Of a stretch of 64,000 nucleotides of DNA, positions 30,578-56,827 are shown in pieces; within the stretch, counting starts at the first letter, position 1; each line of letters opens with the position of its first letter. The notes beneath the pieces were generated by a model, which worked only from the letters and a program-made list of their open reading frames with translations, made no database searches and had not been told where the DNA came from. Source of the stretch: Morchella semilibera (lineage: Eukaryota > Ascomycota > Pezizomycetes > Pezizales > Morchellaceae); NCBI GenBank assembly GCA_009192285.1, contig WBVU01000005.1:682001-746000 (forward strand), given 5' to 3'. A program made the position numbers and the translations under genes.

Positions 30578-33067
30578 TGGGAACAGGTTGTCTTTAGCGC
30601 ACTTTTTCACTAATTCAAAAAGTGTTCTTACTGTTTTGCATCTTCAATAGCCAGACAGCATGGATAGTTCCAACATAAGAAGACCATCCGGCTCGACGGA
30701 CCTAATATTGAGGAGGGCAAAAAGTATCTTCCTCCCAATTTCTATTATGCTATGTGGGGCTGGATAATCTGTAGGCATAAGCTGTGATCTGTTGAATGTA
30801 CTTATCACCTTAGAAAGTGAAATATATTGTACTTGTCCAAATCACCCTTTGGACCAATAGGGGCTGCCCTTTTTAGTAGAAATTACTATATGACAAGCTC
30901 TCGTTATTGTTAAGGGCCCCAGGATATAGAGTAAGGTTCACCTATATCAAAAGGATAGTATACTCTATAAGCGTAGGAAACGATTTTGTAGTGTAGAATT
31001 ATCTATCCATAATCTATCAGTGGATGTGTTCTCGTGCCTAATTACTTTAATCTTATCAAGAAATCACGTGTCAGTATACACTATGACTCCCCTTTCCTTC
31101 ATATAATGAGTAGCTGGATATGTGGAATGAAGTAATATAAAGACAAGAATTTGAGGTAGGTGTACAAAAAAATAGAAAGCACCAGGTCCAGTAATTTACC
31201 TCAACTAGAACCTTTTAATGATATCAACGACATACGGTAGACACACCTTTCTACCCAATGGAAAAAATATTCCAATCCAATCCAGGATGTTGCCCCATAA
31301 CTATTTAAATGTCGCCACAAATGTTCCCAGAGTATAGTATCGTAGCTCCAGCTGGGCTGCAAAACTACAGTGCCCCCACTGTGGGTGAGCTCCGGGCGCA
31401 GAATTAAGGATATTTCTTGGTCAGCAGCCTCCTGCGCCTTCCCCAGTTGGCATGTGGCATTAACAGTGTATAGTCAGATTCACAGTGGTTACAGTCTAGA
31501 CACCGCGGGATGGTAGTCCGCTTTAAGATCCATCAAGTCCATGTGCCAGCATCAAGTAAAAGCAATAAGTACATCAGCAACTTCAACTTGTGATTGGAGT
31601 CACCCAACAGTCTCCTGAGTCTCTGGAGACATCAGGAGACAAATGAAGGCTTGCTGATGCAGGCAATCCCAGATGTCAAAGATTAGTCCACCTTATTTAC
31701 AGGCACCAGCACTCAATAGCAGTCAAACCGAGCTGCCAACACTTATTCAGTTACAGGCAGCAGCAGTGGGTCATAGGTGTTCAAAGCGCCAGCAGGTAGT
31801 CTCAGACACCAACCTTTGAATGCAGTATTCCTCGGGGCGCAGGGAGGCCCCAGGCACAAGCAGCCAGTGTTGGGCACCAGTAGCAAGTCTCCAGGCGCTA
31901 GCTAGAATTCTCAACGATAATCTGGTATTGTGCATGTGACACGTATCAAGAATATTCACTGGTGTTATAGTGAGGCAAGGATGATATTTTTATCTGTATC
32001 GATAATATCATGAGCATCATGCCGTGGGAAACTGACGCCTAATTAGATCTTTGTTTGCTCTTAATCCAGATTTATGTAATTCATGGATTAAAAACGAGGA
32101 AGAAAGTAGAAAAACCTATATTTATACTCCGGAACACTTCCAGGAACATAAGCTAGTACTCAATCACGGTACCATATATTATAGTTGGTACAATAAGGAG
32201 TCCGCAAAACTCCATACAGTTCAATAACCACCGGCGGTGAATGCGGTATAGCATAAAAACCATACCGATACATACTATTGAGATCTCTGGCGCTAGGATG
32301 TTGTGGCAGTGACCTGTAGGAATTCTTGTGCACCACCTATTTTAGAACAGTAAGTGCCAGGGGCAGCAGGCACTATTCAGTGTTAGGTTCCATGTATCGT
32401 AGCATGACTCGCTTAATTCAGTGTGGTGTAGTGGAGTGTGACAAAGTGAGGTAGTGGTGCGACTCGCTGGAAATTGATGTGGTATGGTGGTGGTAGGGGA
32501 GCCGTCCCTGTATTGGAAGAGTAGTTTCTGATGAGATCCTAAGAAGTGGCGGATTACTGCCGAGTGCTGGGGGCTCGGTGGGAGTGATGGATGTAAGTAA
32601 ACTAGTAGTAGGCTATCATGGTGTCGGAAACCACCCCAGGAGTAATACAGTTATCACGGTATCGGGGGGAGCTTTTCTATGATTCTCATGCAGTAGCAAA
32701 AGCTATGCTGGCATTGGTGGAAGTGACATGAACCGTTAGAGCGGGCTTGATGGTTGAGCTGTTCCAGTAGTAGTAGTGGGTGTCATGTAGCTGGGGATTG
32801 AAGCCAGTCTTGTCCGTTTCCTATATAAAGCGGGGTTAACTAGCTATACCGCAGTTTAAGAGTGGATGGTGTTGGTTAGGGAGTCATTTGGGTGGTGGCT
32901 TCTATCCAGCTCTAATACCCCCATGAGTCCGGTCAGAATGAGTGTTATCCCTTTGTCTATTTCCGAAATTCACCACCTCCCGACGATGGTGATTTTCATT
33001 GCTTCAGCCAAATTGGGACGCACCCAAGTTATAGAAATCATCAACGGTCGTACTTGTTTATTATAGA
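30578..33067. other. AT-rich intergenic DNA
   Basis: No gene recognised. It contains one short MITE E copy (31572-31659) and CAG/GCAGCAG-rich phrases at about 31380-31860. All other frames are under 70 codons. Confidence 0.45.
31572..31659 (-). mobile_element. MITE E, copy E1 (88 bp, internally shortened)
   Basis: It has the family termini CATCAGCAA...TTGCTGATG and the flanking phrases of the 137-bp copies, but lacks the central part with the AAAAAAT loop. The flanking dinucleotides (TA and CA) differ. Confidence 0.7.
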
Positions 33068-34609: not shown

Positions 34610-35113
34610 TTTAACTTTCATGGATATGCTAGGTTCCGGAAGTTGGAACAATTGGCAGGGTTGGCATTATTGTAAGCTAGTAGTCGGAGATGAGTCGGAA
34701 TAGGTTCTATGGTTTCTGTTACACGAGAATGTGAGTCATGGTTGGGGTTATGCGAGGGTATGAGTCAGGCTTGGCTCTGGAACATCAGTAAGACCTGATT
34801 AGTCTCCTGATGTATCCTGAGTCTTAGGAGACTCAAAAAATCATCAGGAGTCTCAGGACTCTCTCAGGAGACCCAGGAGACTGTTGGGAGACTCCAGTCA
34901 TAAATTGAGTTTGCTGATGAATAGCGGGTATATAAGGGAGGCAACGGCGCCAATTTCTGTACTTTCCTTCTTCTTCTTTTCTCTTTACGCAACGTCTTCT
35001 GTATCTATCTACGATATATTATAGTTTCTACTTTCCATTAGTGACTATCATTGCTTTCTATACTTCTCATTCATACCTCCCCCTCTCTTAGTAAGTATCG
35101 CTGCCACTACCCC
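34610..35113 (+). mobile_element. LTR-like repeat, family C, copy C1 (left part)
   Basis: It matches copy C2 (55255-55680): CATGGATATGCTAGG start, GGTATATAAGGGAGGCAACGGCGCC (TATA region), CAACGTCTTCTGTATCTATC and GTGACTATCA. A MITE (34783-34919) sits inside it. The copy is cut at 35113 by an 11.7-kb element and resumes at 46859 (GCACCCTGCGGAACGAAG..CCCTCTTGAGAG). Confidence 0.7.
34783..34919 (+). mobile_element. MITE E, copy E2 (137 bp)
   Basis: CATCAGTAAG...GTTTGCTGATG flanked by AA on both sides. The paralogous family-C copy C2 near 55440 lacks it (CGGAATGAGGGG there), which confirms insertion with a 2-bp target duplication. Confidence 0.88.
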
Positions 35114-35463
35114 CATCAGCAAGCTTGGGGTTTTCCTCGGGCACGCATGCATGCGTCCGGTGTCATGTGCCAGTAATCAACCCGCCCTAAACGTCCCCAG
35201 CACCCCTTGCGCCCCGGCGAACTACCAAAATTTCGTTTCCTCCTAGAGATATCAACATTCCTCTATTAGCACTGGCGAGTTCTATCTCCGTCATCAACCA
35301 CCTGGCGACTTCCGTCTCAGCACTCTCTCACTCTATCTTTGGTGCACACGGATCTCGCCCCAAACAAATCATCACTCTAAAGCTCCTATCATAGTCATGA
35401 ATACTCTATTATGGATCGCTACTGCTGTGAAAGGTATGTTCACTTCCCTGAGAGCATTGTGTT

Positions 35464-38400
35464 TTATTTATAGCTAAAATCATTCCATGTACGTAAATCT
35501 ATTCGGGTATTTACAAGCCAATTAGAGCTGTCCACCTCAAAGATATGTGCCATTCCCAAGATGCTACGAATGTTCACAATCCACATCTTTCTCCTTCTTC
35601 TTCTGGAGGCTTTGGGAAGAACGTGGGAGGTGTCGGAAATCCCCCGATCCTTCACCTACAGGAGCTCTATCAGGCACAACCTGTGTGATCGGCCCCTATC
35701 ATCCTGAAGCTTAAACAACGCCTCTAATCGCCCTGGTAGGCGTTCTCCAAACACTCCCCAATTGTCCCGGCGTCTTGGCATTGGTTCCGATAGTTTGGTA
35801 GGCGATGTACGGTTAGGGATGTTAGGGTAATATTTAGCGAGGGTGGGAAGTACGAGGTGGAGGTTGTCGTCATCGGATTCTAAGAGGTTCGATGGGCTGA
35901 TGGATTTGTAATATAGATAGCGGAGATGGTGGGGAGGATTATGAGGTGTGGATACGACGGGTTTCCATGGGTTTCTATGAGGTGATGTATGAGTGATAGC
36001 AGACTGGTGAAGGAGGGGTGTTAAATAGCGGAGATAGATATTTTCCTTAGTTCTTTCTTCCTTTTTTCTCTGTCTCGTCTTCCTGTCAGCTCAGTACATA
36101 GGAAACTACTCCTATTCCAAGCCACAGCCTCTCGTACCAAATACTTGGTCCTCTGATAAGAGGAAACTCATAGTATCTCTCATCGTTCTCGTTGAGGTCC
36201 ATCTGGTCCTCGCTTTCCCTGCTCTGTGTTCTTGTACCCTCGCCCTTGCTTTTGCCTTTGCCCGTGCCTGTGCTTGTGCCTGCCCGGTGTTGCCTCTCTC
36301 TTCGTCAGTCTCCTCGTCCCTAGACTGTGCTCCTCGGGTTCTTCTGCGTCATCATTGTCATCTTCTTCTTTGCGTCGGGTTACTCCGTCACACCAATGCT
36401 CTGAAGACGCTACTGAAACCCATGCCCAATCCTTTCTCGCTGTTCGCTTTCTGAACGCCGCTTCTCCGGTATATCGGAGGTTGTCAATCTCATACATGTC
36501 CAGCTTTTGGAAGATAGGTATCGGAACTTGCAGGCAGGTAAATCTTTCCACACGATATTCACCAAAACTCTCTAAGCTTTCAATAAAGCCCTGGGAGCAA
36601 CCTTCATCCTCTGCATACTCCTTGACCAGACGATATAATGCCGTTTAGTTCATCTTTACCTCATCGGCGATATTGTAGAGCTTTTGCGGCCTAGCCGATG
36701 GATTACATAGTTCCCTTGAAGGCAGGTTAGCGTCAATTGAAGCCCGTTCGTTTGTTGATTTTTTCCTGTCTTGGATTTTGAAAATATGGAGCAGCTCCTT
36801 TAGGTTTTCGCGATGATTCCAGAGGAAGTCATCATTGCTCTCTGAGCATCCAACGATATCTTTGAGGTTTAATATTCGCATGTCCAGTGCTAGTCGCTAC
36901 CAGCCGTAGTCTAAGATCTGCGTCACCGCATCAACCTTGTTTGATGCTTCGCATGGTTCTTTGACTTGATGAACGTGAGCTAATTCGCTGATGTCGGTGG
37001 AGAACATTGGAATGCTGCTAAAGCGCTCTACATGCTCTCTGTAATGCGGTAATAGGTACAATTTGATGAAGTTGAAATGGGGTCTTTCACGGGTCTCGCG
37101 AATCTCCTCCAAGCTACGGTAATTGCCCTGAGAGCCTTGAGATTGCAAAGCTCTGGTCCGATCTTTTGCCTCTTTCCGCGTACGCTTATATGCTCGAAAT
37201 TCCAGGAAGATGTCCTTATGTCTATGGAAGCCTTTGAGATAGTTCTCTAGATATTCCAAAGTACTTGTTGTCTGACTTCCGTATTGTGCCATTAAATGGA
37301 AGTCAATCAAGGCTCGCAAATATTTCAACGCCTTATCAAAGTCTACCCTTATAGCATTCGGCGGGTTTCTCACAACAACCGCGAGTGCCCCTAGGACAAT
37401 CCGTCTATGATTTTGCATCTCCTTTCCCAGCCATTGTGTTGTCGCCCTGTAAGGTTTGTTTGGTACTGCAAGTCCAGGATATGGTGCAATTGACGACCAA
37501 GCCTTGTCGAATTTGTCTAATCGGTGATGTTTCTTAAGGAAACCTTGCACTCACTCCATCATGTGTTTTAAAAGCCCAAGATAGATATTGTGCAAAATAT
37601 CAGGCTTGTTCAAGTCGTAGGCGTTGAATCTAGGTATATCCCAGAAAACATTGAAGAGTGTCTTTACGGTCTTCGACACAAGGTATTCCACTGGCGAAGG
37701 ATTCGCTGGATTCTCGTTGAACTGCCGTACCATCTCCTGATACGTTTCCTGATTACTTGGAGGGCTTCGCCCAATGCTCCCAAGACTTTTGAAATCAACT
37801 TCGCACCTTGGACAGGCTTGGTCGCTGATGTTCTGTAAGGAGGCGTGTTCAGGTTGGTCGGCGATCTGCCCGCACAACACAGGATAACATAATCGCTCAT
37901 AACCATCGGCGCAATTGATAAGCTCGCCTCCACTGCTCCTGAAGCTCCTGAAAATGTCTTTAAGAGCTCGGTGAAGTGCCATTTGACTTTGACGTCGCAG
38001 TATCGCATTGGCAGTTTGGTTGGTACCTAACTTCGGAGGCACTGCCAACAGTGGTAGGAGTAATAGCAAATGCCCAGAGGGCTTGTTTCTTACTAATAAC
38101 TTGATATTGCCAATCGTCAGGTATACTGGCCAAGCCTTCTTGTCACCGCTGAAGTTCGTCAGATGGGTTCCGTCCAATGCGCATATAACGGGTACCAAAG
38201 TGGACCCTTCTGGGAGTGAGTTCTACCCTTAAGTGTTAGCTACTGCTCCCAGAGTAGTCATTAGAGCTCCTAGAGTAGTCGTTAGAGCTCACCTGTATTT
38301 CCCACCACCAATCTGCTGTATGTAGTTCCACGTACATCGGCTCACCAGATTCATTATGTTCTACCACAGGTGCATACACCAAAGACTCTCTGAATGCGCG

Positions 38401-39051
38401 TTGACCTAAAAGAAATCGCACAATAGTCATTGGGTCGCGATAGTAGTAGGGAACTTTCGTCCCGCCTATCTCGACTTCGGAATGCTGCCAGCTTGATTTT
38501 CCCAGGCAATCACTCAGCTCCTCCATCTTCCGTATAAATCCACTGCCATTCCTGTAGGAGCTTTCGCGGTTGCTATCCTGGGTGTGGAGGAAGAAGCTGT
38601 CAATGTTGCCCTTTGACGCTTTCGATAGTATGAAGTAACGTGCTATTCCAAATTCGTATGCAGAGTTAAAAAGGCGCCATGGGTCCCTAAGAAGGCTCTC
38701 CGAGGTTTCCCCATAGTCCTACAAGGCAAACAATCGCTCTCCGGCGACTTCGTAAATAGTGGTTCTTGCCACACGCGTCTCCCCGTCCGAGTCGTCTGTT
38801 TCGTCATTGAAGTAGGACTCTGACTTGAGGTCTGAATTGTGATAGTCGGAGGAGGCGAGGTCGCCATCTATAGAGCCCTCAGGGGTATCATTCGTATTCT
38901 CAGGGGTGTTGTTATGCTCTTCGAGGAGTTGTTATTGATTGCCGAACCACCCATCGGCCTCGAAGGGATGCGTAGCGCGAAGATGCTTATCAAAATTCAC
39001 TGAAGAGCTGTAGCGTTTGGGGCAGAAAGGGCAAGTCGACTTCATGAGCAT
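35464..39051 (-). pseudogene. Plavaka transposase, decayed
   Basis: Read on the minus strand from the ATG at 39051. An N-terminal C2H2 finger (CPFCPKRY...DKHLRATH) is followed by an acidic linker and PYYYRDPMTIVRFLLGQ. A 70-nt intron lies at 38223-38292. The hallmark DGTHLTNFSGDKKAWPVYLT and IGNI follow, then CPRCEVDF, FNAYDLNKPDILHNIYLGLLKH and a basic C-terminus. These are features of Plavaka transposases of the CACTA group. About six in-frame stops are seen (near 38938, 38717, 37552, 36897, 36645 and 35656), all explainable from CAA, CAG or TGG by C-to-T or G-to-A. No frameshift is needed across about 2.9 kb of coding sequence. A solo LTR lies at 35763-36392, and the frame matches on both sides of it. 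Confidence 0.82.
35763..36392 (+). mobile_element. Solo LTR, family A, copy A3
   Basis: 630 bp, TGTCCCGG...CGTCACA, with a perfect 5-bp target duplication CCAAT (35758-35762 and 36393-36397), inside the Plavaka transposase. Confidence 0.92.
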
Positions 39052-39803
39052 TCGCGACTACTCTCTACGTAATCTAATTCCTACTCTCTAGGTAAGCTAA
39101 TCCTTGACGACTGTTTGGAAATTAGACTCGCCAAAGGTCCCTGCCAAGATATGCATGATTAGTAATTTTCTGTTTGTTCAACCAACCACCTCCCTCACGT
39201 CATCTATCAACATCTCCAACATACTACTTCAACCAAACCTCCTAACCACCCACCTCATCTCTCTCGTTTCACTCCAAGTATTCGCAGGTCTTTTTTCTCT
39301 CTCTGCAAGCATTGGTGACTTTCCATTGGGTATTCGCAGATGCTCTTCCCGACTATATTGAAATGTAAGGTCTATCTACCAAATCTATAGACTAAATCTA
39401 TTGACTAAATCTATCGACTAGTAGTCACTGACCTCCAATATTGCAGCTGTAAGCAATCACCAACAGCAACACCAATTGCATGAGTCCGCCCGACCGACGT
39501 CATATATTGATAATGTTCGAACAAGGCATATTGGGTCAGTGCGGAAGCTCTGATAGCACTGATGACTCTCCGTTGAGTTTTGGGTGACACTCAGCATATA
39601 AGAATGCCTTTACCCATCTGGTGTTCCTCTCCCCACCTTTTCTACTACTATACCCACTATCAGCTCTATTTTCAACTCTGACGGTTTCTACTCTTCTTTC
39701 AATTTTCAAGATGCCTTGACTTTCAAAGCATGGGCCGGACCTGTATAAAAGCATTGAGGTTTGCCTTCCTAAAGTCATAGGTTATTTTCACAGCTCCGCC
39801 CCC
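39052..39803. other. Non-coding DNA inside the Plavaka element
   Basis: Upstream flank of the transposase start. It contains a three-fold ACTAAATCTAT(T/C)GACTA phrase near 39385-39420. No gene seen. Confidence 0.45.
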
Positions 39804-40268
39804 TGTATCTCGCCTCCCGCCAAGACGTCTTCGGAACAGGATTGTTGGATAATATCGGTCGATGTCGGAAGTAGAATAATAGATTAGGAAGGAGCTCGGG
39901 TGATAGAATGTAAGCGCTAGGAAGGATGGAGTAGTATCAGGATAGAAGTATGGGTATTGGGAATAGTATGGGTGGTACGGAAGTGGGGGCAGTTCTATGG
40001 GATTCTATGACTATGAGTCAGTGGTGTGACGGGGTAGTTGTATATATAGTGTTCGTTCTTTCCTATGTTTCTGCCTCTCTAGGCAACGTCTTCTTTCTGT
40101 TAGCAATATATTACTTTAGCTCCGGCCCTTCTGTCTGTGTCTCGTTCCTGAACCTGACCCCGAACCTGAACCTGCCTCGCCTCGGGTATCTCCTGCGCCG
40201 ACCCCGTCCTTGTCTCTGTCCCTGGATTTATCTCGCTTTACCCTGGGCCCGGCTCTGCCCCGTTAGAG
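39804..40268 (+). mobile_element. LTR-like repeat, family F, copy F1
   Basis: It matches F2 (56247-56827, minus): TGTATCTCGCCTCCCGCCAAG start, TATATATAGTGTTCGTTC, CTAGGCAACGTCTTCTTTCTG, then Pro-rich CCTGAACCTGAACCTG repeats to CCGTTAGAG. F2 carries a MITE that F1 lacks. Confidence 0.65.
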
Positions 40269-40379
40269 TTATCCGTTCGTTACTCACTACATTGGTCTTT
40301 ACTAGGGGTTTAGTATTGCCTCCCAAAGCATTCCCGGGAGCTCCCACAGGCCTCCCATTGATCCATACAAAGTCCCTCA

Positions 40380-42038
40380 AACCCCCAAGAGAGTCAGTCC
40401 TGAACTCGGCGCCCCTAGAACACCCATAGTCGCGACCATTGCTCCTAGAAACGCCGCTCGCCTCCCCGAAAGCCGCCTCCCTGACAGCCCTCCGGTCAGT
40501 AACACATCTGGTATCTCCCCTACCGCTTGAGATTTAGTAGAACATCGCTCCAACTCCGACACCGCGGGAGTGAGTCTAGCCCCAGTAATAGGAGCAAAAG
40601 GCCCAGCAGGCCCAGTAAGGCCGGTACCAGTAAGATGACTAAGGAAGACTCTACCTCGGCGCCCCGCTCCTACTATAAGGGATTCCTCCTCCCGAGCATC
40701 AAGCTCCTTGTCAGCACCAGCAACACCAACAGCAGCGAAAGCAACATCAGCGAAAGCAACACCAGCAAAAGCAACACCAGCGACACCCAGCACCCGCATA
40801 GTACTCGCCACCCATAGGAAAGCATCCGCGGACGACATGACAACTCCGGCAGGAAAGGCCAAGATGGCCCTAAGCCTAGCCAATCAGAGGAGTGTCTATA
40901 TTCGCCCCCGGTAGGAATTACACGGGCAAATGATATCGACAGCTTGGGTAAATAAAACCATCTCTGGCACTGCCGCCTTCAACGACCTTTGTAACTGGAT
41001 GATGAGAACCCCATATCTCTCTGAGCACAGGCCTGTCTGGGCCGGACCTAACACCGCTGACCGGAGAAGAATCGAGGAAGTTCTCAAGTGGGTCATCGCC
41101 AACGTTGGAAATACGGAAAGGTCTTCAAAGATCACAAGGCAGCGAGAGCTCCGTGAGAATAATGGTTCTGACACACCTAATGACCCTGAAGACCCTGAAG
41201 ACTTGCCCCCCCAAAGCGCCAGAAGGATCGCATGAGCCCGCAGAGTAATCGGGGGTGACTGTGATGGTTACTGTAGTCGACCCTGATGCCATCGCTCCCT
41301 ATGACCCCGATACTGCCCCGAACTACACGTGGGACAACCCGCTCAACGAGCCCAGTTTCATAGTAGTGTTGAATGGAGAGTTGTTTGGTGGGCTGTGCAA
41401 GGTGATAATGAAGCCATGCCTGATAGCGTTATCAGGACCATCCGGGGAGCAATCGCGAATGCTCCACTCTCTTTTCCAGGTGCTCCGACAAACGACCCAC
41501 CAGTGGTGCAGATTACTGACGGCAAAGAGCTTGAGGGGTGGTTGGCCGACACCACCGCTAGACCTCGACGGCTCTTAGCAATACTCCAAAGGGAAGGCGC
41601 TGGTTTTGGTGAAAGTGGTGACGAGTCCCCGCCCAGCCGCCCAGCCAGCAAAGGTTTCCGCACATTGAGGAAACTGATTCTTTCATGCTCGACATTCCTG
41701 CAGAAGACTCCAGCTTTGATCCCAACTTTAGGGTGACCAGTATTGGGCGCGGTATGAATATGCCCCGTACCTTTGAGAGCTTTCAGAGGATCATACAGGA
41801 ATATGTTGTCCGTTGTAATAGGCAATGGGGTGGTATTGACCTTCTTGAACCTATATACCAAAGGAAGTTTCTCGACGCCATCTGTGTTGGAGACCCAGAT
41901 TTCCTGCTCGGGAAGATATGGACACGGACAGAGATAGCAGCGAGGAGAGCTGCTAGTAACGTTCCCAAAGCCCCCAAAGCCGCACCTAAAGGCACACCAA
42001 CTATACCTAGGCCTGCTCACTCGAGCGCCGCCAGGTAG
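40380..42038 (+). pseudogene. Decayed coding region, unknown family (possible retroelement ORF)
   Basis: Plus-strand stretches read as protein in several blocks: ISTAWVNKTISGTAAFNDL near 40930, DPDAIAPYDPDTAPNYTWDN near 41280, and FESFQRIIQEYVVRCNRQWG near 41785. The region is broken. I recognise no domain. It follows LTR-like repeat F1, so it could be the first ORF of an old LTR element, or cargo of the surrounding transposon. A 230-codon minus frame (41358-42050) is a shadow. Confidence 0.4.
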
Positions 42039-42965
42039 GTGGGCAATCACGGCGACTCAGAGAGTATTGGCGATATCTTACAGTTGGCTATCTTCCATTC
42101 TCTATTAGCGCTGTTTACTTTTCTAATTAGTCAGTAGTATACATACCTTTCATTTGTCTGTATATATTTAGAGGGTTGTTGGCGCTATATTTCGAGGATC
42201 GTGTTTTGATTTTGATTATTAGTAAGCAGTGATTAGTAGGCATCTTAACATCTCACCTAGCCTTTGTAGGTTTCGATATTTGAGGAGGATTGGAAAGGGC
42301 TCTGGGAGTAGTCGTCATGATTGATGGGGGCGCTTGGTATCGTAGGGTCGGTTAGGACTGATTTAGATTTTTTATGTAGGCCTAGTCGGAATGGATGTTG
42401 AACCTATTATTTGCCTAATAAGATAATCATTTGCCCTGATTGGGTTATGTTTGGTGCCTTCTTAGAGCCCGATTAGGCTTAATTAAGGATCTTTAGTGAA
42501 TAAGTGAATTGGACTCAAAGTGGAAAGCAGGGTTAGGGTTAGGAAGAGGGGGTTAGTCCTTACGCTCCACCCTCATCTCTCTATTTGCAATTGTACGTCT
42601 ACGGCTTTATCTCTATGGCTTCACCTACCCCCCATCCTCCACCTCAACCTCTATACAGAGTATATTCATATCTTATGATAGTCATCAATACTAACGTTGG
42701 ATACACAAAAGTGGGGGGTTTCTAACATCGAAAAATCGTTTCGTCGCGATCCCGAGGTTTCGAAACTAGAGCATATCATTTTCTCGATGTATTTCCGGCT
42801 CACAGTAACTATGGTTTTCGGGACGCTATTTAGTTTGTGAAAAGCGGCTGTACGCAATAAGCGTGATTATTAGTGTAACTACATATTAAAAGTTTTAATC
42901 GAATAAACATTACTTAATTATTATCCAAGAGGACGATATTGCACTATCAAATAAAAATATCAGAC
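42039..42965. other. AT-rich spacer
   Basis: No gene or repeat recognised between the decayed region and the tRNA-like units. Frames are under 65 codons. Confidence 0.45.
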
Positions 42966-43187
42966 CTAGTCAAAAAAAATTATCTAATTGAAATGTCAGA
43001 CTGCCTCATTGCGATAGCTCAGAGAGCAATGGCCAGTACTGTGAGGATGCTGTGTGGTTACCGAGTGAGCACTTGTGATAACATCTAGTCAAAAAAAATA
43101 TCTAAACACCTCACCACGGTAGCTCAGGTGGTAACGACCAGTGCTGTGGGGCATGTAAAGTTATCGAGTGAGCACTTGTGATTACAT
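42966..43187 (+). repeat. Two tandem units with tRNA-like A box
   Basis: Units at about 42966-43084 and 43085-43187 both start CTAGTCAAAAAAAA and end CGAGTGAGCACTTGTGATAACA-like. Each contains a pol III A-box-like phrase: TAGCTCAGAGAGC near 43015 and TAGCTCAGGTGG near 43120, the latter an exact A-box match. A GGTTACCGAGTGAGC phrase stands where a B box would be. No cloverleaf is convincing, so this is not called a tRNA gene; a tRNA-derived SINE-like repeat is possible. Confidence 0.45.
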
Positions 43188-43334
43188 ACTATCCCGATTG
43201 ATACTAGTGTCCGTCTGCTTTCAGTTTAGCTCAAAAATTGCCTTGCCAAGCCTTGTGCTCAAAATCAGGGGCAGGGGCTCTTCCAACCACACTATTCTCG
43301 AAATACCCGTATCATCACCGTGATTACTATCACC

Positions 43335-45826
43335 ATGCCTCCTAGCAAGCGAGCTTCTACTGGAGAAGTGTACCCCTCTACTAATAGTAAACGAACAAGA
43401 CCCCCAAAGTAGCCTGATGAGGATGCGGAGATACCTCAAGTCCCACTAGGAATGCCCCCGCCCAGAACGACTCGGAAACCTTCTATAGCATCACCCCCAT
43501 CTTCTAAACACCCCCAATTGGCAGCCCCTAGCAAAGGCCTTCTGCGCACTCGAGGATTCTCTAAGAAGCATGGGGATGCCTCACAAAGAGTGACGATTCA
43601 TGTACCCGAGGATCATGTAGGCGGTATGGAATCAAATGCTGAAGAAAATAACAGCAGCGGATCTGATTATGAAGACACTGCCCAGAGCGATCAGGAAAGC
43701 TCTGAAGATGATGAGGAAACTATGAATTCAATCCTATCACAGGGAAGCCAAACAGGTAGAAGGAAGCCTGCATCGCTGCCCCCCACAACTGTGAGAGCAT
43801 TGGCAAAAGCCCCAAAGAAACCTACAGCGGCAGCCGCAGAAGCAATTGCCTCATCGGTTAATCTTCACGTAGTTGAGGTTCGTGAATATGGCTCTTATCC
43901 CTAATTTAATTGGTCCTGCTAATGTTCAGTGATGACGAGTCAGAAAGGCAATCGGCCGCCTCCCAAACCAATGCAAAAGCGAAGGCGAACTTCCGCCGTT
44001 TACCCAACAGAACCACCGACTGCTCTAGCAACTTCCGCGGGTGCTTCCCGGGCACCGGAAACACCTCCTGTCTATATTCCTGACTCCTCACCTATGCCTA
44101 TGCAATTCTCTTCACCGGCTTATCGTGACCCACATGAGATATTTCCTTCGTCGCCATTGCATAGTAGAATGAAGGAAGAGATACCTTCAAACTCTCCCCA
44201 AATCCCTCCTAGCACTCCCTATTCCCCCCCCAGTCAACGTCGACTTTACCGACCTGCCCCGCTGAGTAGCCCCGCGCCCTGTGAGCGGGCCTCCTCTGTC
44301 CCTGAGAGCGAAGACACAATAGACGATTACATGCTCTCCCGAGTCTCCTCGCATATGCTCTCTCCAAGCACTCCCTACCCTTATCCAAGCGCTGACGATA
44401 GCTCCGGGAGCTCTCAGAAAACCCAGTCAAGCAAAGCGCAAAGTTCCAGGAGTGCTAGTGTATTGTCCCTTGAGTGTCAAAGAGTAGAACACGAGTGTAG
44501 TTCATTGATCGGAGAGCATACTCTTCTACGTAAACCGTTTCCGTGCGCGGCAAGACTAACGGTTTCAATAAATATATGGAAAAAGGCTTGTAACACTTTG
44601 GGGTGTAAAACAGATATTGATGACACCGTCATTAAGCAGGCAAGTGCTCTCGCAACACTCCCTAATGCTCTAGCAGCACTCTCTAATGTTCTGACCCAAT
44701 GTTCTGAGAGATGTTAATCAAGCGTAGGTCAGAAGTCTTCACTCCCGAGTCCGTTCACATTTGATGCATGAAGTGAAAGGGCGGCTCGCCAACTCATCTC
44801 TTTATGGGTTTGCTAAGCTCCCAACATCGCATGAAGGGGCGAGCCGTATCCGTTACCTTTTGAAGAATGATCATTTCATCAGCCAACTAGATCACTACGA
44901 GGTGGTAATTCCACATACCCACTAGAGCATTGAGTATAACTCTCTGTCCCGGCGTCTTGGCATCTGTCCCGACAGTCCGGTAGGTGATGTATGGTTATGA
45001 TTGTTGTGGTAATGTTAAGCGAGAGCGGGGAAGCGAGTTGAAGGTTGTCGTCATTAGGTTCTAGAAGGTTCGATGGCGTGATGGATTGGTAATGTAGAAT
45101 AGCGGAGATGGTGGGGAGGATTACGAGGTGTGGTAGCGACGGGTTTCTATGGGGTTCTATGAGCGAAAGTGTGAGTCATAGCGGACCAGTGAAGGAGTTG
45201 TGTTTAAATAGCGGGATAGATTTGTTTCCTTAGTTCTTTTCTTTCTTTCTCTCTGTCTCGTCTTCCTGTTATTCTGGTACATAGGAATCAACTCCTATTT
45301 CTAAGCCATAGCCTCCCGTATCAAAGACTCTGTCCTCCGAAAGAGGAATCTTATAGTACTTATCATCGGCCCCGTTGAGGTCCATCTGGTCCTCGCTTTC
45401 CCTGTTCTGTGTCCTTGTGCCTTTGCCCTTGCCTTTGTCTTTGCCGGTGCCTGTGCTTGTGCCTGCCCGGTGTTGTCTTTGTCTTCGTCGGTTTCCTCGT
45501 CGCGTAGACTGTGCTCCTCGAGCCTATCTGCGTCATCATTGTCATCTTCTTCTTTGCGTCGGGTTACTCCGTCACACTCTCACAGCTATTAGGAGTATCG
45601 TTGCCGGTTCCTAGTGCCGGAGATAGTTGATATTTTATATTATAAATTCTTTGAAGGTATCCGGATGCGAGAAGTCAGGGATCTCGAATTTCTCAAGCGA
45701 ATAAACCTTATCCTGATCTGTTTGGTGGCTACTGCAATTTGGCATGGGTTGCGCGCCTGGTCGACAGGGGTTTACATGAAACTAGACCATTTTCAGTCCG
45801 GGAATGAGACAGTTGTGAGTAAGTAG
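43335..45826 (+). pseudogene. DUF6532-like fungal protein gene, interrupted
   Basis: The frame starts at the ATG at 43335 (MPPSKRASTGEVYPST), with an alternative start at 43452. A 48-nt intron fits at 43882-43929. Disordered Ser/Pro-rich sequence leads to a folded part: RVRSHLM...LYGFAKLP...RIRYLLKNDHFI...YEVVIPH. After the LTR at 44945-45576 come FFEGIRM and NLILICLVATAIWHGLRAWS-TG. The order (charged helix, LL--F, Y, then LVATAI--ALR-WSTG) fits DUF6532, a fungal family of unknown function. Stops occur at 43410, near 44726, near 44920 and near 45615; the first three fit CAG-to-TAG. It lies inside the Plavaka-type element, so it is probable cargo. Confidence 0.55.
44945..45576 (+). mobile_element. 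Solo LTR, family A, copy A4
   Basis: 632 bp with a perfect 5-bp target duplication CTCTC (44940-44944 and 45577-45581), inside the DUF6532-like gene. Confidence 0.92.
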
Positions 45827-46029
45827 TGGCCACTACCCAGGAGGCTATCGGGGATGCTCATACTGATGTGGTGTGTGCCCCAGAGACATTCACGAGAATG
45901 ACAAACATATGGAATAGCCAGACACCAGGAAATTAGGCTGGAACGTTAGAGTTGATTAAGGAGAATCTTCGTGATATGGTAGTTTTTGATTAGAACGATA
46001 TCGCCGAAACATACCAACCTTGAAAATAT

Positions 46030-46346
46030 GAGAGAAGAAGGGCGTTGTGCTGGAGGTAATACCAATAGATGGTCTTAAGGAAGATGATGATGCTCTCGCT
46101 GCAGCTCTGGCCGCATTCCGGAATTCTAGAAGGGGGACCACGGTCACTCCAGGGGCATCTCAGGGGACTAACTATGAGGACAGTCTTGATCCTGAGGTAG
46201 TTGGACCCAGCTGCGGGAAGTTCATGTCGATGTCTACAGGGAACCTGAGGAGGAAGAACAGAATCTCCCAGTTGAGCCAGAGCAGGATTTCGAGCAAGAT
46301 GAATAATACAAACAAGTCCCTACAAGATATCGTGATAGCTCTCTGA
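46030..46346 (+). pseudogene. Acidic-tail coding fragment shared with the second large element
   Basis: The frame reads VIPIDGLKEDDDALAAALAA then FRNSRRG, and ends at 46346. Its start is the twin of IPVEGLSEDDDALAEAPEAL on the minus strand at 63757-64000. It may be the C-terminal part of the DUF6532-like gene or a separate cargo gene; the frame between 45830 and 46030 is broken. Confidence 0.5.
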
Positions 46347-46858
46347 GCTTTGGAAGACGTTATTATTTTATTGGGATTATTTCTATCGGGATTATTCTCA
46401 TTGGGATTATTTCTATTGGGATTATTTCTATTGGGTTTCTATCGGGATTATCTTTATTGTAATATTATTTCATGGACATGGATGTATTATCAAGAGCGGA
46501 ATTTAACCACCAATAGCTACTAGAGGTATCATGAGTGCTATGAGAACGAAATGGGACCCCTATTAATTCACGGTGAGGAGTGAGACCGTCAGGCAGCTCC
46601 AGGTAATATAGGCACCTTCAGGTGAAGCCAGGGAGATATATGTATCTTCAGGAGCATCTATGACCACGCCAGGAGGAATCAGAAAATGGTAATAGCGCCA
46701 GGAGGGGTTCTTCACGCCAAGAGAGGCATGACGTTATATGCACGCCCAGGCGCGCCCTGAGATTTAAAGAACCTCCAGAGATTTGAGTTTGTCTTGGATG
46801 TGCCCTGGGCGTCCTGAGCGCCGTGAACGTCTGAAAAGGCGATCCAGGTTTGCTGATG

Positions 46859-47250
46859 CCGCACCCTGCGGAACGAAGCTACACCCCTGATGCCCTCTTG
46901 AGAGTAGGTAGGTTGCGGGAAGAAAGATTAGTTAGGATGGCTCCTTTTGACTCCATGGTTTTCAGGTGTAGGAGTGTAGGTTGGGGTTGAGCTTCAGGAA
47001 TAGAAGATAGTTTCGGGATTCATATATAAAGGTTTTTGGGGTATCTTATGAGTTTTTGATGGGATAACTAGGTTGGTTATCAGGTATGAGTAACGAGATA
47101 TATATGGAGGACTTGCCGTCGCTTGTAAATAGTTTTTTTCTTCTTCACGCAACCTTCGTATCCTTTTAGCCAATACAATCTTAGCACTCCTAGTCATCAC
47201 TAAGATGATTCTTCTTTCCCATTTGAGACAGAGGTACACCTAGAGTCTTT
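46859..47250 (+). mobile_element. C1 continuation, then LTR-like repeat B, partial copy B1
   Basis: 46859-46903 is the downstream part of the interrupted family-C copy. From about 46904, GGTTGCGGGAAGAAAGATTAGTTAGG, ACGAGATATATATGGAGG (TATA region), TTCTTCTTCACGCAACC and CTTTTAGCCAATACAA match family B. Confidence 0.55.
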
Positions 47251-47347: not shown

Positions 47348-47877
47348 TGTAAAGGGATATCTCAGAAGTCACCAAGATATAGCTAATGCTAAGCGATAGT
47401 TCTGTAGCTTTTAAACTTGTAATATTGTAGACTGGATTCCGTTCGCTTGAGAGATGATGATTCCCCTAAGACGACGGGAATCCTACTGACTGTTTATACA
47501 TAGAGGTGTCACTTGAACCCGTTTACTCCTCCAATAGCAAATCTCCCGCAATGCCTCCGCTACTACTCCGACTTCCTACGAGGTGGGGCAAGCAAGGGTC
47601 CACTCATAAGGTGTGGTAGTGTTTGCCGATTTATAACCGAACCCCGCTTCTGCGCCGTACGTCACTCTTCATCGCACCGCCATACCAGGACAAGACTATT
47701 GTACTACATCAGCAAACTCAACTTGTGACTGGAATCTCCCAACAGTCTCCCGAGTCTCCTGAGAGTCTCCTGAGACTCCTGGATATTTTTTGAGTCTCCT
47801 GAATCTCAGGAGACATATGGAGACAAATGAAGCCTTGCTGATCTACCAGTACCACACTTCCAAGCAATCCTGTAACA
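47348..47877 (-). mobile_element. Solo LTR, family D, copy D2, carrying a MITE
   Basis: It runs TGTAAAGGG...CTGTAACA as read on plus; inverted it matches D1 along its length. The flanks ACCCT / ACCTT are a 5-bp duplication with one mismatch. A 137-bp MITE E copy plus a 2-bp duplication accounts for the extra length. Confidence 0.8.
47707..47843 (-). mobile_element. MITE E, copy E3 (137 bp)
   Basis: CATCAGCAAAC...TTGCTGATC with TA on both sides (47705-47706 and 47844-47845). D1 shows the uninserted sequence (complement of GGTACTGGTAGTACAATGG). Confidence 0.9.
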
Positions 47878-54190: not shown

Positions 54191-54327
54191 CATCAGCAAA
54201 CACAACTTGTGACTGGAGTCTCCCAACAGTCTCCTGGGTCTCCTAAGAGTCTCCTGAGACTCCTGGATATTTTTTGAGTCTCCTGAGGGTCAGGAGACAT
54301 CAGGAGACAAATGAAGTCTTGTTGATG
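54191..54327 (-). mobile_element. MITE E, copy E4 (137 bp)
   Basis: CATCAGCAAAC...GTTGATG, full length. The left flank belongs to family B and the right flank to family A, so it marks a recombination or deletion junction; the flanking dinucleotides (TC / CA) differ. Confidence 0.85.
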
Positions 54328-55254: not shown

Positions 55255-55680
55255 CAATTTCATGGATATGTTAGGTTCGCCGGACTGGAAGGATTGGGAT
55301 TGGCAAGGATGGGATTACTGTGCCCTAGGGGGAGATGATTAGTCAGAAAGGCTTCCCTGAGTTTCAGTTACTCGAAAGAGTTAAGTCATAGTGGGGGTTA
55401 TGCGAGGATATGAGTCAGGCTTAGCTACGGAATGAGGGGTATATAAGGAAGGCAACAGCGCCTACTCCTGTATTTTTTTTCCTTCTCTTTACTCTTCACG
55501 CAACGTCTTCTGTATCTATCAATCAATGTATCTTTATAGTCTCTATCTTACTAGTGACTATCACTGCCCTTTTTAGTATATTGTCCTCTAGAGTTCCTCC
55601 ATCTCAGGGACTCTCGAGGATACTACCCCGCATCCTGCCAAACGAAGTCTATACTACAACGCCCTCTTGAGAGGTGAAGT
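55255..55680 (+). mobile_element. LTR-like repeat, family C, copy C2 (uninserted)
   Basis: CATGGATATGTTAGG...GAATGAGGGGTATATAAGG...CAACGTCTTCTGTATC...ACTACCCCGCATCCTGCCAAACGAAG...CCCTCTTGAGAG. It serves as the empty-site reference both for MITE E2 and for the 11.7-kb Plavaka element. Confidence 0.75.
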
Positions 55681-56246: not shown

Positions 56247-56827
56247 CTCTAACGGGACAGGACAGGTTCAGGAACAGGAACAGGGATGGTGTCGGCTCAG
56301 GAGACACCTGAGGCGAGATAGTTTCAGGTTCAGATTCAGGTTCAGGAATGAGACGGGCACATCAGCAAGACTTCATTTGTCTCCTGATGCCTCCTGAGCC
56401 TCAAGAGACTCAAAAAATCTCCAGGAGCCTCAGGAGACTCTCAGGAGACCCGGGAGACTATTGGGAGACTGCAGTCATAAGTTGAGTTTGCTGATGCAGG
56501 AGGGCCGAAGCCGAAGTAGAATATTGCTAACAGAACGAAGACGTTGCCTAGAGAGACAGAAACATAGGAAAAGCAAGCACTATATATACAACCATTCCAT
56601 CGCAACGATGACTCATACCATAGAATCCTATAGAAACTCCCACACTTCCATACCACCCATACTATTTCCGATAACCCCCATTCTATCCTGTTACTTCCCA
56701 ATCCTTCCTAGCGCTTACATTCCATTAGTACCCGACCTCCTTCTTAATCCATCATTCTACTTCCGACATCGACCGATACTATATGATAACTTTGTTCCGA
56801 AGGTGCCTTGGCGGAAGGCGAGGTGCA
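56247..56827 (-). mobile_element. LTR-like repeat, family F, copy F2, carrying a MITE
   Basis: Inverted, it matches F1 (39804-40268). Removing the MITE and one CA makes the two collinear. Confidence 0.7.
56360..56496 (+). mobile_element. MITE E, copy E5 (137 bp)
   Basis: CATCAGCAAG...GTTTGCTGATG with CA on both sides (56358-56359 and 56497-56498). F1 shows the uninserted state. Confidence 0.9.

What the first reader, a model, noticed from the sequence alone, without database searches (positions are those of the whole stretch)
35114..46858. An 11.7-kb Plavaka-type transposon with DUF6532-like cargo, defined by an empty site in the same window
Seen: matching short inverted termini (CATCAGCAAGC and GTTTGCTGATG), a CC duplication, and flanks that rejoin into the family-C sequence found uninserted at 55622-55660. 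Known: DGTHLTNFSGDKKAWPVYLT is a Plavaka hallmark. Inferred: the DUF6532-like gene, the decayed 40.4-42.0 kb region and the acidic-tail gene travel as cargo. I know of no described Plavaka element with a DUF6532 gene.
Basis: partly seen in the sequence, partly recalled or inferred. Interest (0 to 1): 0.85.

Follow-up and report, generated by a model that had tools for sequence, protein, structure and literature searches.

The report
Three-gene Plavaka transposon carrying DUF6532
This stretch of fungal DNA is a worn-out copy of a mobile element that, in the four families of it examined in this genome, carries its jumping enzyme together with two further proteins of unknown function, one holding a DUF6532 domain, which suggests that these are working parts of the element and not chance passengers.

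Summary
Window 35114-46858 is one PlavakaB-type DNA transposon: CATCAGCAAGC/GTTTGCTGATG ends, CC target duplication, and flanks that rejoin into an interspersed repeat with 36 other uninterrupted places across the insertion point. All 5 independent loci with this family's left end pair with its right end, each with its own TSD.

The interpretation needs changing. The three 'cargo' items are two genes: ORF2 (the 'decayed' region) and a DUF6532 gene (ORF3) whose last exon is the 'acidic-tail gene'. They recur in four families; 12 of 13 insertions with both ends read hold all three genes (8 were picked for Plavaka-DUF6532 pairs). Genome-wide, 36 of 51 DUF6532 hits lie within 10 kb of Plavaka (rotation mean 2.2, maximum 9). 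Gene trees agree except on the place of one group; dN/dS is 0.18-0.48 in three moderately diverged pairs, other pairs being higher. I read ORF2 and ORF3 as resident accessory genes, perhaps like CACTA TNPA; that function is inferred. The window copy is broken. My literature searches found no description of this gene set. New variant of a known kind.

The parts
35114..46858 (.). whole PlavakaB-type element (11,745 bp, including two nested ~630-bp elements); broken copy
   Evidence: TIRs, CC TSD, empty sites, a relative homologous from end to end
35112..35113 (.). target site duplication CC, left
35114..35124 (+). left terminal inverted repeat CATCAGCAAGC
46848..46858 (-). right terminal inverted repeat (GTTTGCTGATG on the + strand)
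46859..46860 (.). target site duplication CC, right
35467..39045 (-). ORF1, Plavaka transposase gene, broken by in-frame stops and by the nested element at 35763-36392; the start at 39043-39045 is read by eye from the sequence
   Evidence: PF18759 on 37554-38222 and 38239-38718; C-terminal part by homology to C7; relatives have open frames of 993-1028 aa, one with a weak N-terminal C2H2 match
40306..42035 (+).
   Evidence: homologous to the 785-aa frame of C20; 38 genome matches, 32 merged loci
43336..46343 (+). ORF3, DUF6532 gene, last exon acidic (46032-46343); in-frame stop at 43410-43412 and nested element at 44945-45576; exon assignment by homology, no RNA
   Evidence: PF20149 at 45611-45799; homologous to the five-exon, 546-aa ORF3 model of C7 and to exons of C20 and C10
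35763..36392 (+). nested ~630-bp TGT..ACA element, 5-bp TSD CCAAT; absent from the C19 copy at this place
44945..45576 (+). nested ~630-bp TGT..ACA element, 5-bp TSD CTCTC, inside ORF3; absent from the C19 copy at this place
55430..55673 (+). uninserted copy of the flanking interspersed repeat (empty site; junction near 55626)

Best explanation
The feature is a decayed copy of a three-gene PlavakaB transposon of the CACTA-like (CMCT) clade. The element carries a Plavaka transposase on one strand and, divergently on the other strand, ORF2 and then ORF3 (DUF6532). All three genes are its own and have been inherited together since before the families in this genome split. SHOWN: ends, TSDs, empty sites, gene order, recurrence in four families with read ends, gene trees that agree except for one group, and purifying selection on ORF2 and ORF3 between moderately diverged loci. 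INFERRED: the transposase cuts at the conserved CATCA ends, while ORF2 and/or ORF3 bind family-specific subterminal repeats to help assemble or regulate the transposition complex, or to keep the element unsilenced, as TNPA binds subterminal repeats of En/Spm. The window copy is itself inactive: ORF1 and ORF3 each have in-frame stops and a nested insertion, and ORF2 has stops and frame changes.
For: Pfam: Plavaka; DUF6532 over positions 8-193 of 194 in ORF3 of the C7 copy, E 3.2e-16. Linkage: 36 of 51 DUF6532 hits <10 kb from one of 72 merged Plavaka loci, 29 of the 36 divergent to the nearest one (contig-pair twins not merged); rotation control mean 2.2, max 9 in 1000. ORF2: 27 of 32 loci <10 kb from Plavaka; 22 of 32 with DUF6532 <8 kb, 21 of those 22 same strand and downstream. 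Tet_JBP as contrast: 0 of 11. Insertions with both ends read: 13 (fam1 5, fam2 4, fam3 2, fam4 2); matching TSD of 2-3 bp in 12 of 13; in the two fam3 cases a TSD was a search condition, so the unconditioned count is 10 of 11. All three genes in 12 of 13; C19:1421599-1443356 has no DUF6532 hit; in three fam2 copies ORF2 is taken from their near-identity to C7, in fam3 from PF24465. Fam2 copies are >99.5% identical over most of their length. The same families group in all three gene trees. dN/dS C20 against C1f 0.30, 0.32, 0.28 for ORF1, 2, 3. PF24465 Tri-helical has 4 hits in the genome, all at the place of ORF2. Subterminal motif CCTGGCG: 11 + 3 in the two 450-bp ends of C20 against 0.18 per 450 bp inside.
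Against: No biochemical evidence; neither ORF2 nor ORF3 matches a solved structure convincingly (only row 9q8p_A at E 0.48). 32 of 72 Plavaka loci have no DUF6532 hit within 15 kb, so some copies may work without it or are decayed. The fifth group (C10, C2:2516-2523 kb) sits with fam1 in the ORF2 tree (0.98) and ORF3 tree (0.75) but with fam2 and fam3 in the Plavaka tree (0.87), a conflict that could mean exchange of genes. Subterminal repeats are plain only in fam4; by the top-7-mer count only the fam4 left ends and one fam2 copy (C1b) exceed the 95% level of their own interiors, and in fam1, the window's own, the motif is modest and mostly at one end. Profile comparison did not link fam3's ORF2 with the other ORF2s. 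dN/dS is 0.34-1.0 in C20-C3, 0.53-0.70 in window-C19, 0.27-0.82 in two fam3 pairs and 3.4, 0.66, 0.78 in C10-C2c. One genome only, and the stretches were chosen because most held Plavaka-DUF6532 pairs.
Confidence: 0.7

Rival explanations
1. ORF2 and ORF3 are passenger genes captured from the host that serve the host or nothing, and hitch-hike.
For: Many Plavaka loci lack a DUF6532 hit (32 of 72); transposons of this clade in other fungi carry a TET/JBP gene (PMC12730594, passages read); one group is placed differently in the gene trees.
Against: Same order and orientation in families whose transposases are 39-78% identical, dN/dS in the same range for all three genes in three moderately diverged pairs, 0.18-0.48, and no clear stand-alone host DUF6532 gene: of the 15 hits >10 kb from Plavaka, 4 lie within 8 kb of an ORF2 match and none sits in an open frame longer than 169 aa; frames are counted exon by exon, and most element-borne hits sit in short frames too, so this last point is weak.
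Confidence: 0.15
2. ORF2/ORF3 act as sequence-specific anti-silencing factors, like VANC proteins of Arabidopsis VANDAL elements, and not in the cut-and-paste reaction.
For: ORF2 evolves fastest (24-55% between families where Plavaka is 62-78%); fam2 has a variable 101-bp tandem repeat near one end and inside; VANC targets are fast-diverging tandem repeats (PMC10398659, abstract and outline read).
Against: No homology to VANC shown or tested; no methylation data. These elements lack the TET/JBP gene (0 of 11 near Plavaka), which speaks neither for nor against.
Confidence: 0.3
3. Two separate transposons happen to lie side by side and the outer ends were paired wrongly.
For: The genome holds many copies of the same 11-base end, some of them in short elements.
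Against: A second copy is homologous from end to end; 5 of 5 left-end loci pair with the right end, each with its own TSD; four families show the same layout.
Confidence: 0.02

Closest known systems
PlavakaB lineage of Plavaka transposons (Kojima 2025, PMC12730594; passages read)
   Same: PF18759-type transposase, termini CATCA..TGATG, 2-3 bp TSDs.
   Different: The passages shown describe TET/JBP as an extra gene of some PlavakaB families and do not mention DUF6532 or a Tri-helical protein; here no TET/JBP hit lies within 10 kb of Plavaka and two other genes do.
CACTA/EnSpm elements with TNPD and TNPA (background in PMC2613891; passages read)
   Same: Short conserved ends, a conserved transposase and a second, fast-evolving protein; subterminal repeats that differ between families (plain in fam4).
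   Different: Ends are CATCA, not CACTA; ORF2 and ORF3 lie divergently to the transposase gene, and DNA binding is not shown.
VANDAL/VANC anti-silencing system (PMC10398659; abstract and outline read)
   Same: Transposon-borne extra proteins; targets that diverge fast.
   Different: Different superfamily (recalled); no sequence link tested; function here unknown.
DUF6532, PF20149
   Same: ORF3 matches nearly the whole domain.
   Different: Pfam gives no function; one paper in the library names it (PMC8955403), listing it with Plavaka, KDZ and CxC2 among additional domains of two Ganoderma species (passage read).

Membership tests
PlavakaB transposon | PF18759 transposase | tested here: met
   E 7.3e-45 in the window; 4.9e-73 in C20
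PlavakaB transposon | termini 5'-CATCA..TGATG-3' | tested here: met
   one of 13 insertions has CATTA at one end
PlavakaB transposon | 2 or 3 bp TSD | tested here: met
   CC in the window; 12 of 13 insertions overall, 10 of 11 where a TSD was not a search condition
PlavakaB transposon | C(2)C and H(3-4)H motifs and catalytic acidic residues | not tested
   not examined residue by residue
PlavakaB transposon | position in the PlavakaB clade of a transposase tree | not testable with these tools
   no PlavakaA or Repbase sequences at hand
TET+ Plavaka | TET/JBP gene inside the element | tested here: not met
   11 PF12851 hits in the genome, 0 within 10 kb of a Plavaka locus
CACTA/EnSpm (canonical) | CACTA termini | tested here: not met
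   termini are CATCA
CACTA/EnSpm-like working | short repeated motif in both subterminal regions | tested here: inconclusive
   plain in fam4; post hoc motifs exceed shuffles in fam2 and fam3 too and, just, at the window's right end, but by the top-7-mer count only fam4 left ends and one fam2 copy exceed their interiors
CACTA/EnSpm-like working | accessory protein binds that motif | not testable with these tools
   needs a binding assay
DUF6532 (PF20149) | profile match over the curated cut-off | tested here: met
   ORF3 of C7 60.2 bits against 24; window piece 27.6 bits
Tri-helical (PF24465) | profile match over the curated cut-off | tested here: inconclusive
   28.4 bits at two fam3-like places (cut-off 27), 25.4 and 25.2 at one fam3 and one fam4 place; 15.5 bits in one of two fam2 ORF2s and none in the other; none in the window piece 40915-41232

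The most novel reading that the evidence does not exclude
DUF6532 and the Tri-helical ORF2 protein form a two-protein, family-specific recognition or anti-silencing module of PlavakaB transposons, a basidiomycete counterpart of TNPA/VANC that stands in for TET/JBP; and DUF6532 proteins of mushroom genomes at large are transposon genes, not host genes.
Probability: 0.35. Interest if true: 0.75.

Novelty: new variant of a known kind. Interest (0 to 1): 0.55.

Why it matters
It moves an orphan domain (DUF6532), and probably a second one (Tri-helical), from 'unknown fungal protein' to 'resident gene of a transposon' in this genome, with a testable role. If general, DUF6532 counts in mushroom genomes would measure transposon load and not host biology; one published Ganoderma comparison already lists DUF6532 and Plavaka side by side. 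It would also suggest that Plavaka, like CACTA elements, needs more than a transposase.

Tried and rejected
Considered and rejected: two adjacent elements wrongly paired; a TET/JBP-carrying Plavaka; TGT..ACA ends for the C17, C1 and C19 copies (up to 13 of 15 matching, at scattered places, against a 14-of-15 CATCAGGAAAAAAT pair found in both C17 and C19). No convincing ends were found for the C1:2033-2045 kb copy.

Led nowhere: PDB searches with ORF3 alone and with ORF3 and ORF2 profiles; PHROGs with the ORF3 alignment; profile comparison of fam3 ORF2 with the others (no significant match). Splicing by a simple script: C20, C3 and C10 gave only the first part of ORF3, C17 and C19f models that leave the frame inside the domain; only C7 and C2a gave a whole ORF3. 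Generality in other fungi was not tested: the whole genomes held are prokaryotic, and I did not search the viral or other collections. The organism was not identified. Of the 11 papers that name Plavaka, I saw passages of 4.

Dropped before counts: copies on C22 and C13 were counted with C21 and C12 among the 13 insertions, but contig-pair twins were not merged in the 51, 72 and 32 hit counts. Family searches score only the best candidates (123 of 153), so counts are lower bounds. Rotation used the span of hits on each contig as its length. Rows covering less than 30% of the query were left out of the trees; ORF2 of three copies (C17, C19f, C2l) gave no match, so the ORF2 tree has 10 of 13 rows. 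The motifs were picked, so its first-order shuffles overstate significance. The C20-C19d ORF3 value (0.47) may include a misaligned stretch. For C20 the chosen end pair tied on score with one other pair and was preferred for its TSD.
Full report
Where and what. The window is part of a 56.8-Mb genome of 23 contigs (C21:682001-746000), fungal by its contents; the organism was not identified. C22 holds the same 12.7 kb at 99.95%, so the two count as one insertion.

The element. CATCAGCAAGC stands at 35114 and GTTTGCTGATG ends at 46858, with CC on each outer side. With one CC removed, the joined flanks match window 55430-55673 without a break at the junction and 36 other scored places that run through the junction at 82-88%. 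C19:4653758-4662321 is the same element at 88-92%, with TSD GA. Left-end and right-end searches find five independent loci with both ends (window, C19:4653758, C1:1902177-1913790 TSD TG, C12:1069334-1079981 TSD CT, C19:1421599-1443356 with AAG on both sides and one end mutated to CATTAG); Plavaka and ORF2 matches lie inside all five, and a DUF6532 match in four. One further right end has no partner.

Nested pieces. Window 35763-36392 and 44945-45576 are ~630-bp elements with TGT..ACA ends and 5-bp TSDs (CCAAT, CTCTC), absent from the C19 copy at those sites; the C19 copy has its own at another site (TSD TGGGC). The C19 copy also lacks window 41896-43956, which holds the start of ORF3, and about 480 bp at 39785-40266.

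Genes. ORF1 is Plavaka. PF24465 (Tri-helical) has 4 hits in the genome, all at the place of ORF2: two over and two under the cut-off; it is weak or absent in fam2 and absent in the window piece tried. In C7, fam2 holds two ORF2 copies in a row. ORF3 in C7 is a 546-aa, five-exon gene by a simple splice model of my own, with a nearly full DUF6532 domain. Its counterpart in the window runs from 43336 to 46343, so the acidic tail is its last exon; that rests on the homologous exons of C20 and C10 and on position, not on RNA.

Linkage. 36 of 51 DUF6532 hits lie within 10 kb of one of 72 merged Plavaka loci, though such ground is 2.4% of the genome; 29 of the 36 are divergent. Rotating positions within contigs gave a mean of 2.2 and a maximum of 9 in 1000 trials. 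ORF2 lies with them: 22 of 32 ORF2 loci have a DUF6532 hit within 8 kb, in 21 of these downstream on the same strand. Tet_JBP, known from other Plavaka elements, gave 0 of 11. Against: 32 of 72 Plavaka loci have no DUF6532 hit within 15 kb.

Families. fam2 (C7, C2 and two C1 copies) is >99.5% identical over most of its length, with TSDs TA, TA and TC and one copy without: recent movement of elements with all three genes. fam3 (C17:135080-146339, C19:4633190-4646315) and fam4 (C20:2864861-2875537, C3:2050198-2060447) have TSDs CG, GG, TC, AT. A fifth group (C10, C2:2516-2523 kb) was seen only in part. The copies of fam2 to fam4 were chosen because they held Plavaka-DUF6532 pairs, so the 12 of 13 is not an unbiased sample; the fam1 count, found by ends, is 4 of 5.

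Age and selection. Between families Plavaka is 39-78% identical, ORF3 26-68%, ORF2 24-55% without fam3, whose ORF2 gave no BLAST match and no profile match. The same groups appear in all three trees; fam2 joins fam3 in both trees that hold fam3 (0.99, 0.96). The fifth group joins fam1 for ORF2 (0.98) and ORF3 (0.75) but fam2 and fam3 for Plavaka (0.87), so the trees are not fully congruent. dN/dS (ORF1, ORF2, ORF3): C20-C1f 0.30, 0.32, 0.28; C20-C19d 0.25, 0.25, 0.47; C20-C11 0.18, 0.48, 0.34. Younger or decayed pairs are higher: C20-C3 1.00, 0.88, 0.34; window-C19 0.53, 0.70, 0.54; C17-C2l 0.82 and 0.27, C17-C19f 0.58 and 0.82 (ORF1 and ORF3); C10-C2c 3.4, 0.66, 0.78. Between families only ORF2 could be computed (0.18, 0.21), with dS of 1.8-2.8, near saturation.

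Mechanism. In CACTA elements the transposase acts on conserved ends and TNPA binds subterminal repeats that differ between families (PMC2613891, passages). The layout here is alike: conserved ORF1 and ends, fast ORF2, and in fam4 a CCTGGCG motif 11 and 3 times in the two 450-bp ends against 0.18 per 450 bp inside. Post hoc motifs in fam2 and fam3 also exceed shuffles; in the window CCAGG (1 + 7) is just above the highest of 300 shuffles (7) and in its C19 relative (2 + 4) level with it (6). By the top-7-mer count only the fam4 left ends and one fam2 copy exceed the 95% level of their interiors. Hence the accessory role is my best guess, not a result.

Known or new. The PlavakaB ends and TSDs are published (PMC12730594). 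In the library searched, 11 papers name Plavaka and one names DUF6532, the Ganoderma paper, which in the passage I saw lists both as additional domains without linking them; PF24465 is named in none. I saw passages of 4 of the 11. The paper that I recall as introducing Plavaka (Iyer and others 2014) is not held, so I cannot say whether it mentions these genes.

Noticed in passing
window 34783-34919, 47707-47842, 54191-54327, 56360-56496, 31572-31659: Short (~137 bp, one truncated) non-autonomous elements with CATCAGCAA-like ends, probably mobilised by PlavakaB transposases; the 11-mer end occurs 237 times in the genome against 8 for the reversed control.
   Followed up: partly
window 35763-36392, 44945-45576, and related stretches at about 33.7-34.3, 48.5-51.8, 53.4-54.8 and 61.9-63.1 kb: A ~630-bp repeat family with TGT..ACA ends and, in the three copies examined, 5-bp TSDs; family not identified.
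   Followed up: partly
contig pairs C21/C22, C12/C13, C9/C10: Matches at near-identical coordinates on paired contigs, as if both haplotypes were assembled; C21/C22 are 99.95% identical over 12.7 kb.
   Followed up: no
C7:825121-837320 and three relatives: A 101-bp tandem repeat near one end, with an inverted-orientation array inside, varies in copy number between otherwise >99.5% identical copies.
   Followed up: no
window 43004-43187: A ~80-bp stretch repeated at about 105 bp distance just upstream of ORF3 (74% match).
   Followed up: no
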